From Bacillota bacterium (GTDB lineage: Bacteria; Bacillota; Clostridia; Christensenellales; UBA1242): DNA of 64,000 nucleotides. The notes under the pieces were generated by a model. It had not been told where the DNA came from. It made no database searches and was given only the letters and a program-made list of their open reading frames with translations. Made by a program: the position numbers and the translations under genes. How positions within the stretch are numbered: the first letter of the stretch is position 1; each line of letters opens with the position of its first letter. The DNA lies in contig WRBO01000003.1 in NCBI GenBank assembly GCA_009784555.1, forward strand, positions 1 to 64,000, read 5' to 3'. Positions 27,974 through 61,504 of the stretch are shown here, piece by piece.

Positions 27974-28245
27974 ATGTCACCAACCCCCTTGACGCCCAAA
28001 AATCTCATGCTACCCTAAAATGTAAAGGAGGGTAGTATGTCTGGTTTCTCGGCTGCCAACGAGATATGTTTTTCATCTTCTGCGGATACACTGTGGATGT
28101 TACATACTGTAGGTGTACCAGTCCTCGAAGACAAAAAACACATCTCGGGCGCGCCTCGAAAACCCCCCCCCAACAGAAAAACATAAAAAGTAAAAACCCC
28201 CCCCAAGGCCCAGAACGGAAAACTCTTCGGAATTTTGCTCGAACT
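27974..28245 (+). ncRNA. Poly-C structured element 1 (candidate ncRNA)
   Basis: Promoter-like start: ATGTCA (27974), TTGACG (27989-27994), 16-bp spacer with CATG, TACCCT (28011-28016). Predicted transcript from about 28023. Then CGGCTGCC, a long stem CGAGATATGTTTTT (28060-28073) with AAAAAACACATCTCG (28133-28147) plus TCTTC/GAAGA, an apical TCTGCGGATA and AGTCCTCGA, GGCGCGCC-like closing GCGCGCCTCG, then C9 (28163-28171) and C8 (28197-28204) separated by 25 A-rich bases, a hairpin and CGAACT (28240-28245). The carbonic anhydrase start codon is 45 bases later, so this could be a long 5' leader of that gene. See elements at 45433 and 61092. Confidence 0.6.
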
Positions 28246-29836: not shown

Positions 29837-32800
29837 ATGATAATTAATCGTATTGGTAACTTTGGCTTTCTCGGCGGAGACAACTTGGCACTTGACATAC
29901 TACTGGTCATTGCTATTATTGCCGTCGGGGTTTTTTTAATAGCCGCAATCGTCTACTTCTTCTCTTTATGGAATGGACGAAACGGACGACGCAATGGCGA
30001 GGGTGGCGGCCGCGACCGAAGCGCCGAGCGACGCGAACGTGACTTGGAACGACGTGAACGGGAACAACGCGAACGCCAACAACGGGATTTGGAACGGCGA
30101 GAACAAGAACAACGTGAACGCGAACAGGCCGAGCGTGAAAAACGCGAGAAGGAATTAAAAGACCGCGAAGAAGCATTAAAAAAAGAACAGGAGAAAAAAC
30201 CAGAACCACCAGCTCCGCAATCCCAGCCCCAAGAAAAAGAAGCATTCGGTGACTTTACAAGAAACGAAGTAGCAACAAGGCAAAAAGCAGAAGAAGCGAG
30301 GACAAACCAAGTGACAACAAACCCGGGGAACAGACCACCATCAAACCCAAACCGCCCAGCAGGCGGTCGGAGCTTCTTTGACGAAATGAACAAAGAAGAC
30401 CAAGAGATTTTCCCAAAACGCCCCCCAGCAAATCAGCAACAGCCACAACAACGCCCCCAACAGCAACAGCAACAGCCACAACAACCACCGCAATACCGTC
30501 CGCCGGCGAACCAACAACAGGGCTCGCCATTTGGAAATGGACAAAATGACCCATTTGCCCAACAGGCGCAACAACGCCCGCAACAACAACCACAACAATC
30601 TCCGTTTGCACCGCAACAAAACCCGTACAATAACCAAATGATGCAACAACCGCAAAACGGAGCAGGGGACAAGGCAACCCAAGAAAAATTTGACAAAATC
30701 CTGGACCAACTCCAGGCACAAAACGCGGCCCAGGCCGAGGCACTGCGAAAAGCCCAAGAGGACCAACGCCAAAACCAAGAAAACCAACGCCGCGCGGCCG
30801 AAGACCAACGCTTTGCCGCAATGCAACAACAATTGGATGCTCGTAACCACCACCAACAACCACAAGACAATTCAAATGCCCAGGTCGAGGCAATGCGCCG
30901 CGAGATGGAAGAAATGCAACGCCGTATGGAACGCGAACGTGAACAGGCCGCGGCCCAAGCCCAAATGGAACAAAAGAACGCACAACTAGAACAAATGCGT
31001 CGCGACATGGAGGAAATGCAGCGCCGCATGGCCGCTGGAACATCATCTCCTATGGCATCATCACCTGTCCAAAACCAAGAAATGATGGCGCTCCAACAAC
31101 AAATCGCCGAAATGCAGCGCAGCATGGAAAAAGAGCGCGAGCGTATGCAACGTGAACAGGCCGAGCGCGAACGCCAAGCACAATTCGATGCACAACAGGC
31201 GGCAACCCAAGCCCAACTTGACCAAAAGAACGCCCAACTGGAAAAAATGCGCCAGGAAATGGAAGAAATGCAACGCCGCATGACAACACCTGCCGCCGCT
31301 GCCCAAAACCCAGAGGTCGCGGCACTCCAACAACAAATTACCGAAATGCAACGAAACATGGAAAAAGAGCGCGAGCGCATGCAACGTGAACAGGCCGAGC
31401 GCGAACGTCAAGCCGCTTTCGATGCACAACAACAAAAATACACTGATGCATTGCGCCAAATGCAAGACCGCAACGACCAAACAATCGCTGACCTCCAAGA
31501 CCAAATCGCGCGTTTAGCACACGGTTCGGAACGTGAACACGTTCAACAACGCATCGACCGCGAAAACGGCGACCACGACATGCTACGCCGTGAAATGGAA
31601 AAACAAATGCAGGCCCTGGCTGACGAACGCAACGCACAACGTGCCGAGTTCGAGGCAATGAAAGAACAAATGCGCCGCGAAGCCGAGGAAGAGCGTGCCC
31701 GAAAAGAGGCAGAAGAGCAAAAGCGCAAGTTTGAAGAAGAAATGGAACGCCAACGCGTAGAGCTGTCCGCCCTTAAACAAAACCTGCTTGCCGAGCGTGA
31801 GAAAATGATGTCGGCAATAGGGGAGGAACGTGCCCGCCTCGAAAGAACCATCGTCGACGCAGAAGAAAAAGCGGCAAAACGCGCCGAAGAGCTAAAACGC
31901 ATGGAGCACGAGCAACTGCAAAAAGCCGCCTACGGCCCGCAAAGCCCATATGGTTACCAGCAACAACAACGCCCGCAACACCAACAACAATATGGCCCAT
32001 ACCAACCTGACCAATATGGCAACACTTACGGAAACCAATATCAACAACCTGAACCACAGGTAAAAGTCGTCGAAAAAATTGTCGAGGTTGAAAAACCTGT
32101 CGACCGCATTGTCGAGGTCGAAGTCGAAAAGATTGTTGAAAAACTCGTCGAGGTCGACCGCCCAGTCGAAAGAATCGTTGAAGTCGAAAAACTGGTCGAG
32201 GTAGAGAAATTAGTTGAAGTTGAAAAAATTGTAGAGGTAGAAAAGCCAGTTGACCGCATCGTCGAAGTCGAGAAGATTGTTGAAATCGAAAAGATTGTCG
32301 ACCGTCCATTTGAAACCATAGTCGAGGTCGAGAAAATCGTCGAAGTGGAAAAACCTGTCGAAGTCATCGTCGAAAAAGAAGTTGAAAAGCTCGTCGAAGT
32401 AGAGAAACTGGTCGAGGTCGAAAAACTTGTCGAAGTTGAAAAGATAGTAGAGGTAGAGAAGCCAGTTGACCGCATTGTCGAAGTCGAGAAAATTGTGGAA
32501 GTCGAAAAGATTGTCGAGGTCGACCGTCCGTTTGAAACCATAGTCGAGGTCGAGAAAATCGTCGAGGTGGAAAAACCAGTAGAAGTTATCGTCGAAAAAG
32601 AAGTTGAAAAGCTCGTTGAGGTCGAGAAACTTGTCGAAGTAGAAAAACTCGTCGAAGTAGAGAAACTGGTCGAAGTTGAAAAAATCGTCGAGGTCGAGAA
32701 AGAAGTCGAAGTCGAAAAGATTGTGGAAGTAGAGAAAATAGTTGAAGTCGACCGCCCAGTGGAAGTTGAAAAAATCGTTGAAATCGAGCGTATTGTCGAG

Positions 32801-34489
32801 GTCGACCGCCCGGTAGAGGTCGAGAAACTTGTCGAAGTAGAGAAGCTCGTAGAGGTTGAAAAAATCGTCGAGGTCGAGAAACTGGTCGAGGTCGAAAAGA
32901 TTGTTGAAATCGAATCGGCAGCCCTGAAACAAGAGGCCGAGCAACTGGCCGCACGTAACGAACAACTCATTGCCGACATGGCGCAACTGCGCGACACGAA
33001 AAACACAGAAATGGAAGCCGAGCGCGCACGTATGCAACAACAAATCCGCGCCGAGTACGAGGCCAACGAACAACGTCTGAACCAAAAATACCTTGAACTA
33101 CGTGCCCAACTGCAACAGGAAAGTGTAGACCTTGAAGCCCGCGTAGAAGGCATTCGTGAGGAACAAGAGCAACTCAAACTGGCAAAAGACGAATTGGCCG
33201 AAGAACGTGCAATGGTAAAAGAACGCATGGAGCTAGAGCTAGAGGTCGAACGCGCTAAACTTGACGCCGAAAAAGCACGTATCGAAGCACGTCTAGAAGG
33301 CGAAAAGGCAAAACTCGAACTGCGCCTGGAAAAAGAAAAAGTTCTAATTGAAGGTCAAAAAGAAGTCGAACTGATGAAGAAGATGGAAGAGGACAGAATG
33401 TTCTTGGAAACGGAACGCACCCGCCTCGAAGAGCAAAAACTCACATTGGAAACCCGCCTGGTCGAGGAACGCAGACTGCTGGAACAACAACTCGAATTCG
33501 AACGCGAGAAACTCATCGCCGCCGAACGCGAACGAATGATGAGCCAAGTTGGAACAGAAGCCTCCGCAGAAGACCAACGCCGCCTGCAACTTGAAAAACT
33601 AGAGGCCGAACGTCGCTTCGCCGAAGAAAAGCGCGAGCTCCAAGAACGCATGACCGCCGAACGCGCCCGCCTAGAGGCCGAGGTTCGCGAAATCTCCGCA
33701 CTGCTCGTCCAAAAAGACGAACAGGTACAGGAAATGCGCGCAAACCCTGGCACCGTGATGGTTGTCGACGAAGGCAAACTTGAACTGGAAAAAGCCAAGT
33801 TAAAGGCAGAGGTCGAGGCTGAACGTGCCCGCCTGCGTGAAGAACACACACGCACAGAATCCGAACTGCGCGCCCGCTACGAACAACTGCAAGTCGGCCT
33901 GCGCCGTCAAGAAGAACAACTCTCCGTCCGTGCAAGTGAATTGGAACTAAAAGAACAACAAATCACGAACGAAGAAACACGCGTAATGCAGGAACGTCAC
34001 GAAATCCACACCCTCATCACCGAACGCGTGTACACCGCCGATGAACGTGTGAAAATCGTGGAAGACTACCAAGGCCGCTTGGAACAACTGCGCGAACGTC
34101 TGCGTGAAAACGAAAAGGCCCTGCGCGGAAACAACAAGGAATTCATCCCATTGCGCCGAATTCGCGACACCCTTGAACGCGACATGAAACTCCTGCGCAA
34201 ACGTGAGGCCATCGTCGCCCGTCAACAGGTTCTTGTGTACGGTGTCAACAACATCACAACCCTGGACCCAGAGCGCGTCAAAAAACTCGAACAAGACGTT
34301 CAGCAACTCACTGGTCTGCAACAATCCGTCGCGAACTGTGAAGACATCATGCACAAAAACCGTGACCGTTTCCCAACTCTGGAAAACTTGGACAAGGTAT
34401 TGCGCGGACAAAACCGTCAAATCCGTTCGGACATCGAAGAATACGAAAAAGCAATCTCATTCTTCGAGACCCAATCCGCATCCGAGTAA
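29837..34489 (+). CDS. Giant membrane-anchored coiled-coil protein with [I/L]VEVEK repeats
   Basis: 1550 residues. One TM near residues 17-45; then an Arg/Glu-rich stretch (46-120); a Gln/Pro-rich region (about 195-290); coiled coils with near-identical blocks (MEEMQRRM, EREREQAERERQ) to about 720; a repeat tract at about 741-1026 built from [IL]VEVEK hexamers with VDRP/KPVE spacers, including a 222-bp (74-aa) higher-order duplication (32311 and 32533); then a charged coiled coil to the C-terminus. No enzyme motif. Topology suggests a membrane-tethered cytoplasmic scaffold. The repeat-rich DNA creates long antisense open frames that I treat as artefacts. Function unknown; the start has GGGGGTAA upstream. 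Confidence 0.8.
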   Translation: MIINRIGNFGFLGGDNLALDILLVIAIIAVGVFLIAAIVYFFSLWNGRNGRRNGEGGGRDRSAERRERDLERREREQRERQQRDLERREQEQREREQAEREKREKELKDREEALKKEQEKKPEPPAPQSQPQEKEAFGDFTRNEVATRQKAEEARTNQVTTNPGNRPPSNPNRPAGGRSFFDEMNKEDQEIFPKRPPANQQQPQQRPQQQQQQPQQPPQYRPPANQQQGSPFGNGQNDPFAQQAQQRPQQQPQQSPFAPQQNPYNNQMMQQPQNGAGDKATQEKFDKILDQLQAQNAAQAEALRKAQEDQRQNQENQRRAAEDQRFAAMQQQLDARNHHQQPQDNSNAQVEAMRREMEEMQRRMEREREQAAAQAQMEQKNAQLEQMRRDMEEMQRRMAAGTSSPMASSPVQNQEMMALQQQIAEMQRSMEKERERMQREQAERERQAQFDAQQAATQAQLDQKNAQLEKMRQEMEEMQRRMTTPAAAAQNPEVAALQQQITEMQRNMEKERERMQREQAERERQAAFDAQQQKYTDALRQMQDRNDQTIADLQDQIARLAHGSEREHVQQRIDRENGDHDMLRREMEKQMQALADERNAQRAEFEAMKEQMRREAEEERARKEAEEQKRKFEEEMERQRVELSALKQNLLAEREKMMSAIGEERARLERTIVDAEEKAAKRAEELKRMEHEQLQKAAYGPQSPYGYQQQQRPQHQQQYGPYQPDQYGNTYGNQYQQPEPQVKVVEKIVEVEKPVDRIVEVEVEKIVEKLVEVDRPVERIVEVEKLVEVEKLVEVEKIVEVEKPVDRIVEVEKIVEIEKIVDRPFETIVEVEKIVEVEKPVEVIVEKEVEKLVEVEKLVEVEKLVEVEKIVEVEKPVDRIVEVEKIVEVEKIVEVDRPFETIVEVEKIVEVEKPVEVIVEKEVEKLVEVEKLVEVEKLVEVEKLVEVEKIVEVEKEVEVEKIVEVEKIVEVDRPVEVEKIVEIERIVEVDRPVEVEKLVEVEKLVEVEKIVEVEKLVEVEKIVEIESAALKQEAEQLAARNEQLIADMAQLRDTKNTEMEAERARMQQQIRAEYEANEQRLNQKYLELRAQLQQESVDLEARVEGIREEQEQLKLAKDELAEERAMVKERMELELEVERAKLDAEKARIEARLEGEKAKLELRLEKEKVLIEGQKEVELMKKMEEDRMFLETERTRLEEQKLTLETRLVEERRLLEQQLEFEREKLIAAERERMMSQVGTEASAEDQRRLQLEKLEAERRFAEEKRELQERMTAERARLEAEVREISALLVQKDEQVQEMRANPGTVMVVDEGKLELEKAKLKAEVEAERARLREEHTRTESELRARYEQLQVGLRRQEEQLSVRASELELKEQQITNEETRVMQERHEIHTLITERVYTADERVKIVEDYQGRLEQLRERLRENEKALRGNNKEFIPLRRIRDTLERDMKLLRKREAIVARQQVLVYGVNNITTLDPERVKKLEQDVQQLTGLQQSVANCEDIMHKNRDRFPTLENLDKVLRGQNRQIRSDIEEYEKAISFFETQSASE
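32060..32915 (+). repeat. Tandem [I/L]VEVEK-coding repeat tract
   Basis: In-frame repeats of a roughly 18-bp unit (six codons) with synonymous variation, plus a 222-bp duplication visible as two copies of TGAAACCATAGTCGAGGTCG (32311, 32533). The copies vary at synonymous sites, so the tract is not a very recent expansion. Confidence 0.8.
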
Positions 34490-45242: not shown

Positions 45243-45461
45243 ATGAACGAACTGGAACAATACACGGAAGACTTGCACGAGTTTTCACTATATATAAACA
45301 GAGTAGAAGAAATCGCCAATACCCTAGGCATCCCTCTCAAATCCATGTACATTGATTTCACCCCCGCCCGCTGGCTGGTCGATTACCTTAATGGTTATAT
45401 TGACTGTATGCTCGCAAATAACTTATCAACAAATGTCAGTAACCCTCTTGACCCTAAATAA
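45243..45461 (+). CDS. Small protein of unknown function, 72 aa
   Basis: GGGGGAA ribosome binding site. Acidic N-terminal helix (MNELEQYTEDLHEFSLYINRVEEIANTLG) and a WLVDYLNGYIDCML segment. No family recognised. The divergent XRE regulator next to it could make this a regulator-effector pair, but nothing shows toxicity. Its 3' end overlaps the promoter of poly-C element 2. Confidence 0.5.
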   Translation: MNELEQYTEDLHEFSLYINRVEEIANTLGIPLKSMYIDFTPARWLVDYLNGYIDCMLANNLSTNVSNPLDPK

Positions 45462-45758
45462 TTCCATGTTACTGTAACATGGAGGGACGAAACATATGGA
45501 GCAAATAATTTTCGCCAGGCCGAGGACAAGCGGAAACGGCCTACCCACAAATGAAGCTCATTTCACTATGACCATGGTGGTCTTTCCGCCTCCACAGGCC
45601 AAGAAAATTCATTTGTCCACTATGTTTCGTCCCAACGCCACCTGTCCGCGTTCGGAATTCCGAAAACCCCCCCCCAACAAAAAACGCAAAAGTAAAAAAA
45701 CCCCCCCCAAGGCTTCGCCTTCGGACCAAACGAAAATTCTTCGAATTTTGTCCGAACT
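45433..45758 (+). ncRNA. Poly-C structured element 2 (candidate ncRNA)
   Basis: ATGTCA (45433), TTGACC (45448-45453), 16-bp spacer ending CATGT, TACTGT (45470-45475); the -10 lies in the palindrome CCATGTTACTGTAACATGG. Predicted start near 45482. Arms GGACGAAACATA (45485-45496) and TATGTTTCGTCC (45621-45632) close a long hairpin with further inner pairing (AATAATTTTC/GAAAATTCATT, GCGGAAA/TTTCCGC). Then C9 (45667-45675) and C8 (45701-45708), 25 nt apart; GGCTTCGCC; hairpin AAAATTC-TTC-GAATTTT; CGAACT (45753-45758). A long in-frame stretch here is not considered coding. Confidence 0.6.
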
Positions 45759-61091: not shown

Positions 61092-61504
61092 TTGTCAGCA
61101 AGCATCTTGACTATGCAAATTTCCATGTTACTGTAGGGTGCAAAGGCATCGGCTGCCTAGGCAAGGTCTTTCTTTCGTCTGCGGATAAATCAGATGTGTT
61201 ATATCCGCCAGATATGGGGGAGTCCTCGACGTACAGAAAGACTTGCCTGGCGCGCCTCGCCCTCGTCCATGTTTTTGGATGACTGAAAATTGAAAACTAA
61301 ATATTTAACACCGTTTAACATGCTTACCTCCAACTGGAGGACGGTTACGCTCGTAATTTCACCAAACCACGGACCACGTGTTATAAATGTGAACATAGTT
61401 CACGGATTAATGGAAAACCCCCCCCAACGGAAAATATAAAATGGAAAACCCCCCCCAAGCTTCGCTTCGGGCCAAACGCTGCTCTCGCGGCCTCGGCCCG
61501 AACT
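61092..61504 (+). ncRNA. Poly-C structured element 3 (candidate ncRNA)
   Basis: TTGTCA (61092), TTGACT (61107-61112), 16-bp spacer ending CATGT, TACTGT (61129-61134). CGGCTGCC follows, then AGGCAAGGTCTTTCT (61159-61173) pairs with AGAAAGACTTGCCT (61235-61248) apart from one bulged G; inside are TCTGCGGATA, TATCCGC (61202-61208) and AGTCCTCGA as in element 1; GGCGCGCCTCG; an extra stretch of about 150 nt not in element 1; C8 (61418-61425) and C8 (61449-61456) 23 nt apart; GGGCC..GGCCC hairpin; CGAACT (61499-61504). Located between two unrelated operons. Confidence 0.6.

What the first reader, a model, noticed from the sequence alone, without database searches (positions are those of the whole stretch)
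27974..28245. A family of three structured, probably transcribed elements with paired poly-C tracts
Three intergenic regions (27974, 45433, 61092) share the same ordered parts: [A/T]TGTCA exactly 15 bp before TTGAC; TTGACN; a 16-bp spacer ending CATG(T/C); TAC(T/C)NT; a long hairpin; C8-C9, 23-25 A-rich bases, C8; a final hairpin; CGAACT. The promoter parts are conserved well beyond sigma-A contacts. The main stems pair strongly in each copy, but the arms differ between copies (e.g. CGAGATATGTTTTT, GGACGAAACATA, AGGCAAGGTCTTTCT), which is compensatory change and argues for a functional RNA and against a MITE, whose ends would be conserved. I know no RNA class with these features, so it may be undescribed. 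Lengths differ (about 223, 277 and 364 nt).
Basis: partly seen in the sequence, partly recalled or inferred. Interest (0 to 1): 0.88.

Follow-up and report, generated by a model that had tools for sequence, protein, structure and literature searches.

The report
Mosaic hairpin repeats with a promoter
These three regions are copies of a modular repeat family scattered through one tiny bacterial genome: each is built from exchangeable hairpin pieces, usually carries a promoter, and some pieces sit in frame inside essential genes such as dnaA and rpoD, so they look like spreading repeats rather than a new RNA gene.

Summary
The 1.12 Mb genome holds about 55-58 copies of the promoter-like module, at least 43 paired poly-C modules and 31 copies of one hairpin core; fetched copies add two further core variants. 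None was found in four congeners or the other relatives searched, and the poly-C pair occurs only as two isolated chance-like hits in 85,000 species. The copies are mosaics: promoter, then one of several interchangeable hairpin cassettes, optional small hairpins, poly-C pair, terminal hairpin. The main hairpins of the three window copies come from different cassette types, so comparing their arms did not show compensatory change. Within each cassette family, however, covariation is strong (21 of 34 pairs changed on both sides). Poly-C and terminal-hairpin modules also lie in frame inside dnaA, rpoD and DUF6291 genes. At rpsR-murC they occupy a junction that holds an ordinary terminator-like hairpin in a congener. 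Best reading: a lineage-specific mosaic of non-autonomous palindromic repeats with a working promoter, like BOX, Correia or Rickettsia palindromic elements. A dedicated RNA function is neither shown nor excluded. No mobilising enzyme was identified.

The parts
27975..28016 (+). Copy 1 promoter module (TGTCA 27975-27979, TTGAC 27989-27993, TACCCT 28011-28016)
28057..28149 (+). Copy 1 hairpin cassette, type A8 (CGAGATATGTTTTT arms; core in reverse orientation)
28163..28204 (+). Copy 1 paired poly-C module (C9, 25 nt, C8)
28205..28245 (+). Copy 1 terminal hairpin, degenerate
45434..45476 (+). Copy 2 promoter module; its -10 region overlaps the perfect palindrome CCATGTTACTGTAACATGG
45485..45633 (+). 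Copy 2 hairpin cassette: A6 arms around X core (CGAGGAC...TCCACAGG)
   Evidence: 123.8 bits with model R1, which was built including this copy
45649..45665 (+). Copy 2 small palindrome U (GCGTTCGGAATTCCGAA), shared with other copies
45667..45708 (+). Copy 2 paired poly-C module (C9, 25 nt, C8)
45720..45758 (+). Copy 2 terminal hairpin H3 (TTCGGACCAAACG...GTCCGAACT)
61093..61134 (+). Copy 3 promoter module, starting 3 nt after the stop codon of the upstream ABC-transporter gene
61148..61259 (+). Copy 3 hairpin cassette, type A7 (GCCTAGGCAAGG arms; X2 core in reverse orientation)
61263..61281 (+). Copy 3 small hairpin W (matches CATCCATGTTTTTGGATG with 2 or fewer mismatches)
61367..61413 (+). 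Copy 3 D5 hairpin module (CCACGGACCACGTGT...GGATTAATGG)
61418..61456 (+). Copy 3 paired poly-C module (C8, 23 nt, C8)
61466..61504 (+). Copy 3 terminal hairpin H3

Best explanation
A lineage-specific family of non-autonomous, mosaic palindromic repeats. At least six repeat modules (promoter P, large X hairpin with alternative arms, H3, D5, W/U, paired poly-C) have spread over this reduced genome, alone and in composites with a preferred order P - hairpin cassette - small hairpins - poly-C pair - H3. They settle mostly between genes, often directly after a stop codon, and poly-C/H3 also insert in frame into disordered protein regions. Shown: modularity, copy number, absence from the relatives searched, covarying stems with fixed internal loops, in-frame copies, one gene junction occupied here and free in a congener. 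Inferred: P is an active sigma-A-type promoter, so many composites are transcribed as leaders or short RNAs; spread used an unidentified enzyme or recombination in trans; stems stay paired because one arm is recopied from the other by replication template switching, or because the hairpin itself is the substrate for spreading, or both.
For: Module grammar and solo modules. Counts: 29 strict poly-C pairs genome-wide, 43 under a looser pattern in the fetched stretches, about 55-58 P, 31 X by covariance model. Found only in this genome: poly-C 0 of 59 relatives, P at background in 98 relatives, X 0 of 59, poly-C pair in 2 stretches of unrelated species among about 85,000. Different arms, nearly all self-complementary: mean duplex -37 versus -15.5 kcal/mol shuffled. 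Covariation score: X 0.385 versus 0.075-0.145 for slid partners; H3 0.459; D5 0.377. In-frame copies in dnaA, rpoD and DUF6291 genes, with congeners lacking these peptides in DnaA and RpoD. rpsR-murC junction: poly-C + H3 + inverted D5 here, about 70 bp with a terminator-like hairpin in congener G002. X lies forward or reversed relative to P. Promoter-type constraint in P.
Against: No target-site duplication, terminal inverted repeat or mobilising enzyme was identified; only the Y1 transposase (absent) and reverse transcriptases (two) were searched genome-wide. The fixed module order is not what random nested insertion predicts. Internal loops stay unpaired and invariant, which arm recopying alone would not preserve, so some selection must act on them. 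P..poly-C composites between two co-directional genes point with the genes 12 times and against them 4 times, which hints at use by the host.
Confidence: 0.72

Rival explanations
1. A new class of functional structured RNA: P drives short RNAs whose hairpins with fixed internal loops bind a protein or ligand in trans or act as 5' leaders; the copies are a recently amplified RNA gene family.
For: P constrained as a promoter; invariant motifs CGAGGAC/CCNCAGG and covarying stems; no Rfam match; one core pair is G-U in 15 of 25 copies.
Against: X occurs in both orientations relative to P and without P; mean sense minus antisense folding energy is -0.3 kcal/mol and G-T cells (23) about equal A-C cells (25) over all pairs, so no RNA strand is favoured; different cassettes follow the same promoter; poly-C/H3 are translated inside genes; none found in relatives.
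Confidence: 0.15
2. A promoter and leader regulon: P with TGTCAGYAACCCC is a transcription-factor-controlled promoter of this species, and the hairpin/poly-C leader controls the downstream gene.
For: Upstream motif conserved beyond -35/-10; P lies directly before the RBS and start of DUF6291 genes, and a P-like site lies before dnaA.
Against: Among 31 P..poly-C composites with a scored downstream gene, 11 face a gene on the opposite strand, which cannot be driven; the regulon would have to differ completely from all congeners.
Confidence: 0.1
3. Stem covariation is purely mutational: replication template switching homogenises arms of inverted repeats, with no function for the structure. This concerns why the stems covary and can hold together with the best explanation.
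For: Double changes, including transversions, occur almost without mispaired intermediates in the X core (1 non-pairing cell of about 500); core orientation is inverted between cassette types, as spacer inversion predicts; the mechanism is documented (PMC8794818, PMC8604942).
Against: Internal loops are invariant although arm recopying would repair them; it does not explain spread or modular order.
Confidence: 0.3

Closest known systems
BOX, RUP and SPRITE repeats of Streptococcus pneumoniae (PMC3049150)
   Same: Modular composites with a variable middle, lone modules, stable hairpins, near restriction to one species with lower density in a close relative, ORFs formed by large elements, clustering of different repeats.
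   Different: Here there are more module families, a conserved promoter module, paired poly-C tracts and whole-stem covariation among paralogues; no TIR or TSD found; sequence relation not tested.
Rickettsia palindromic elements (reviews PMC2229807, PMC10969869)
   Same: Short palindromic repeats inserted in frame in conserved genes of a small genome, with long stem-loops.
   Different: Here most copies are intergenic composites with a promoter; the in-frame modules are poly-C and H3, not a whole long palindrome.
Correia elements of Neisseria (PMC10969869)
   Same: Non-autonomous repeats carrying sigma-70-like promoters next to genes; hairpin transcripts.
   Different: Correia elements have terminal inverted repeats and target duplications; not seen here. 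Not modular in this way.
REP/BIME mosaics with RAYT transposase (PMC2817692, PMC3116915)
   Same: Mosaics of palindromic units in both orientations, high copy number between genes.
   Different: No Y1 (RAYT) transposase found in the genome; modules are larger and hierarchical.

Membership tests
Known Rfam RNA family | Score above the family's gathering threshold | tested here: not met
   Window: only a tRNA; five element loci with relaxed E-value: one chance-level hit
REP/BIME with RAYT | Y1 transposase (PF01797) encoded in the genome | tested here: not met
   No match in the 88% complete genome
REP/BIME with RAYT | Palindromic units in both orientations within mosaics | tested here: met
   H3, X and U modules occur in both orientations within composites
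MITE (generic) | Terminal inverted repeats and target-site duplication | tested here: inconclusive
   No conserved ends beyond an A/T run before P; TSD not assessable without closely related empty sites
BOX elements | Modular composition with lone modules | tested here: met
   Preferred order with variable middle, solo modules: works like BOX
BOX elements | boxA/boxB/boxC sequence homology | not tested
   No BOX model was run; the S. pneumoniae family was not compared by sequence
Rickettsia palindromic elements | In-frame insertion into unrelated conserved genes | tested here: met
   dnaA, rpoD, DUF6291 genes
Rickettsia palindromic elements | Sequence homology to an RPE family | not tested
   No RPE model was run
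New structured RNA class | Covariation supporting helices | tested here: met
   (paralogous copies, so not independent events)
New structured RNA class | Homologues with the same layout in related genomes | tested here: not met
   0 of 59 relatives
New structured RNA class | Discrete transcript | not testable with these tools
   No RNA-seq

The most novel reading that the evidence does not exclude
An undescribed hairpin-based spreading system: an unknown enzyme recognises the invariant internal-loop motifs (CGAGGAC/CCNCAGG, GACGAG/AAGGAGGCC) of folded hairpins and exchanges or copies the helical segments between them, building promoter-bearing composites across a minimal genome and adding peptides to DnaA and RpoD.
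Probability: 0.2. Interest if true: 0.82.

Novelty: new variant of a known kind. Interest (0 to 1): 0.55.

Why it matters
It gives about 30 paralogous copies of one hairpin in a single genome whose stems have been replaced pair by pair while the loops stayed fixed. That makes the open question of whether compensatory change reflects selection for structure or replication template switching directly testable. It also shows repeats entering two essential regulators, dnaA and rpoD, in frame, and bringing a promoter to dozens of gene junctions in a minimal genome. For RNA discovery it is a warning: covariation among paralogous repeats is not by itself proof of a functional RNA.

Tried and rejected
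One homologous RNA in all three window copies: rejected, cassettes differ. Small-protein reading of the P-linked ORFs (for example MEQIIFARPRT...): codon score too low for a gene call, and core length varies by 2 nt between copies so the frame is not kept. General promoter of the species: a looser TGTCA-N9-TT search added almost nothing outside the elements. RAYT/Y1 mobilisation: no enzyme. Retroelement link: two reverse transcriptases exist (UG26-type and a DGR) but no convincing element lies in the 3.6-kb stretches fetched around either. Phage or plasmid origin: no match; the one viral-collection hit with an element, L164, carries the same sequence as the host locus L074, and L165 does not match the model. 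Chimeric arms in L074 lie at a contig end and are treated as a likely assembly artefact.

Full report
OBSERVATION. The window is part of a 1.12 Mb, 29-contig, 88% complete genome. The three regions contain the parts described, in the order described, at the stated coordinates. A first-order Markov model of the window gives 0.0 expected poly-C pairs against 3 seen, and 0.22 expected TGTCA-N9-TTGAC against 4 seen, one of them inside a gene. Rfam gives only a tRNA in the window, and no meaningful weak match in five element loci.

SCALE AND DISTRIBUTION. The poly-C pair occurs 29 times genome-wide under a strict pattern and 43 times under a looser one in the fetched stretches. The promoter module P has about 55-58 copies. 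It stays at background in 98 relatives, four of them congeners. The poly-C pair is absent from 59 relatives and appears in only two stretches, of unrelated species, among about 85,000 species genomes. A BLAST query with copy 2 hits only this genome among 40. A covariance model of the main hairpin finds 31 copies here and none in 59 relatives; no model of this kind was made for the other modules. Phage and plasmid collections give nothing. One contig of the viral collection (L164) carries the same locus as L074, so it is probably the same species.

ANATOMY. Mapping recurrent modules shows a grammar: P; then one of several hairpin cassettes (A6, A7, A8, A10, G4, or none); optional W, U, S, D5; the poly-C pair; H3; sometimes a further short module. 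Modules also occur alone, and X, H3, U and D5 occur in either orientation relative to P. In the window, copy 1 carries A8, copy 2 carries A6 around an X core, and copy 3 carries A7 plus W, S and D5.

HAIRPINS. Forty X cores were collected. Their outer arms fall into eight sequence clusters at 70% identity, nearly all self-complementary (mean duplex -37 kcal/mol; shuffled -15.5). In an alignment of 25 copies, 21 of 34 pairs have changes on both sides and the covariation score is 0.385, against 0.075-0.145 when partners are slid. The motifs CGAGGAC and CCNCAGG, which bracket an internal loop, are invariant or nearly so. H3 (0.459) and D5 (0.377) show the same pattern in their apical stems. These sequences are paralogues, so the counts are not independent events. 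Wobble pairs do not exceed A-C mismatches overall (23 versus 25), although 15 of the G-T cells sit in one core pair, and folding energy shows no strand preference. The structural signal is real but does not point to RNA of one strand.

PROMOTER. Information content is high at TGTCAGYAACCCC, TTGAC and TG-TAC..TA and low in the spacer between them. This pattern fits a promoter kept by selection better than a passively copied repeat. P sits directly upstream of the RBS and start of two DUF6291 genes, and a P-like site with TATAAT lies about 10 nt upstream of the dnaA start codon. Yet 11 of 31 P..poly-C composites with a scored downstream gene face a gene on the other strand, so promoter function cannot be the whole reason for their spread.

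INSERTION EVIDENCE. The poly-C module lies in frame in dnaA (NPPQKNLENEITPP, in the variable linker where congeners are mostly shorter). Poly-C plus H3 lies in frame in rpoD (KTPPKKKQEKKTPPQGVALGPNARPAASARTI, in the disordered N-terminal tail; congeners lack it). It also lies in frame in a DUF6291 gene (L024), and a shortened pair plus H3 in its paralogue (L056). At the conserved rpsR-murC junction this genome has poly-C, H3 and an inverted D5 starting at the rpsR stop codon, whereas congener G002 has about 70 bp with a terminator-like hairpin. This is one site and the two species are diverged, so replacement rather than clean insertion is possible.

MECHANISM. The most economical account is a mosaic of non-autonomous palindromic repeats that spread in this lineage. 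Covarying stems can arise by template switching between arms, which recopies one arm from the other and can invert the loop (PMC8794818, PMC8604942). The near absence of intermediate mispairs in the X core and the inverted cores fit that. The invariant internal loops do not, so some selection, at the DNA or RNA level, is also needed. What moves the modules is unknown: no Y1 transposase was found; two reverse transcriptases, a UG26-type and a DGR, exist but no convincing element lies in the 3.6-kb stretches around them. Other transposase and recombinase families were not searched genome-wide.

COMPARISON. The system works like pneumococcal BOX repeats (modular, near species-restricted, hairpin-forming; PMC3049150), like Rickettsia palindromic elements (in-frame in genes; PMC10969869) and like Correia elements (carrying promoters; PMC10969869). 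Membership in any of these is not claimed: sequence homology was not tested, TIR and TSD were not found, and the RAYT criterion for REP/BIME failed.

LIMITS. The assembly breaks inside many elements, so counts are lower bounds and composites at contig ends may be chimeric. Gene calls came from a simple codon-usage script.

Noticed in passing
window 29837-34489: 1550-aa protein with long runs of 18-nt repeats encoding Val-Glu-Lys-rich units (about 32057-32908); no Pfam match.
   Followed up: no
L029:2896-4380: Primary sigma factor RpoD carries a 32-aa peptide encoded by poly-C + H3 modules in its N-terminal tail.
   Followed up: partly
L013:2769-4139: DnaA carries a poly-C-encoded peptide in its linker, and its promoter is P-like with a start codon only about 10 nt after TATAAT, suggesting a leaderless mRNA.
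   Followed up: partly
L133 (C4:16749-17408): Diversity-generating retroelement with Avd, a reverse transcriptase and a small protein with a MutS domain I upstream.
   Followed up: partly
L132:1105-2304: Reverse transcriptase matching PADLOC RT_UG26 (DRT-type) at 4.8e-155.
   Followed up: partly
window 15506, 43939, 50736: Another short palindromic repeat, TATTGCGGTCCAGGGGTCACCCCTGG, three copies in the window.
   Followed up: no
window 45243-45461; L028, L056, L065: Paralogous short ORFs (MNELEQYTEDLH...) lie directly upstream of P or G4 modules and seem ended or truncated by them.
   Followed up: no
L089 (congener G002, upstream of dnaA): The congener has a different palindromic sequence before dnaA (CCCGACCGAAGTCGAG...), hinting that each species carries its own repeat families.
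   Followed up: no
L134:8309-8409; L074:2263-2313: Very long C runs (C14-C20) at contig ends, probably collapsed or mis-assembled poly-C modules.
   Followed up: no
L066: Region with subtilisin-like proteases and a PPWW-repeat protein that failed the codon-usage gene model although the ORFs are long.
   Followed up: no
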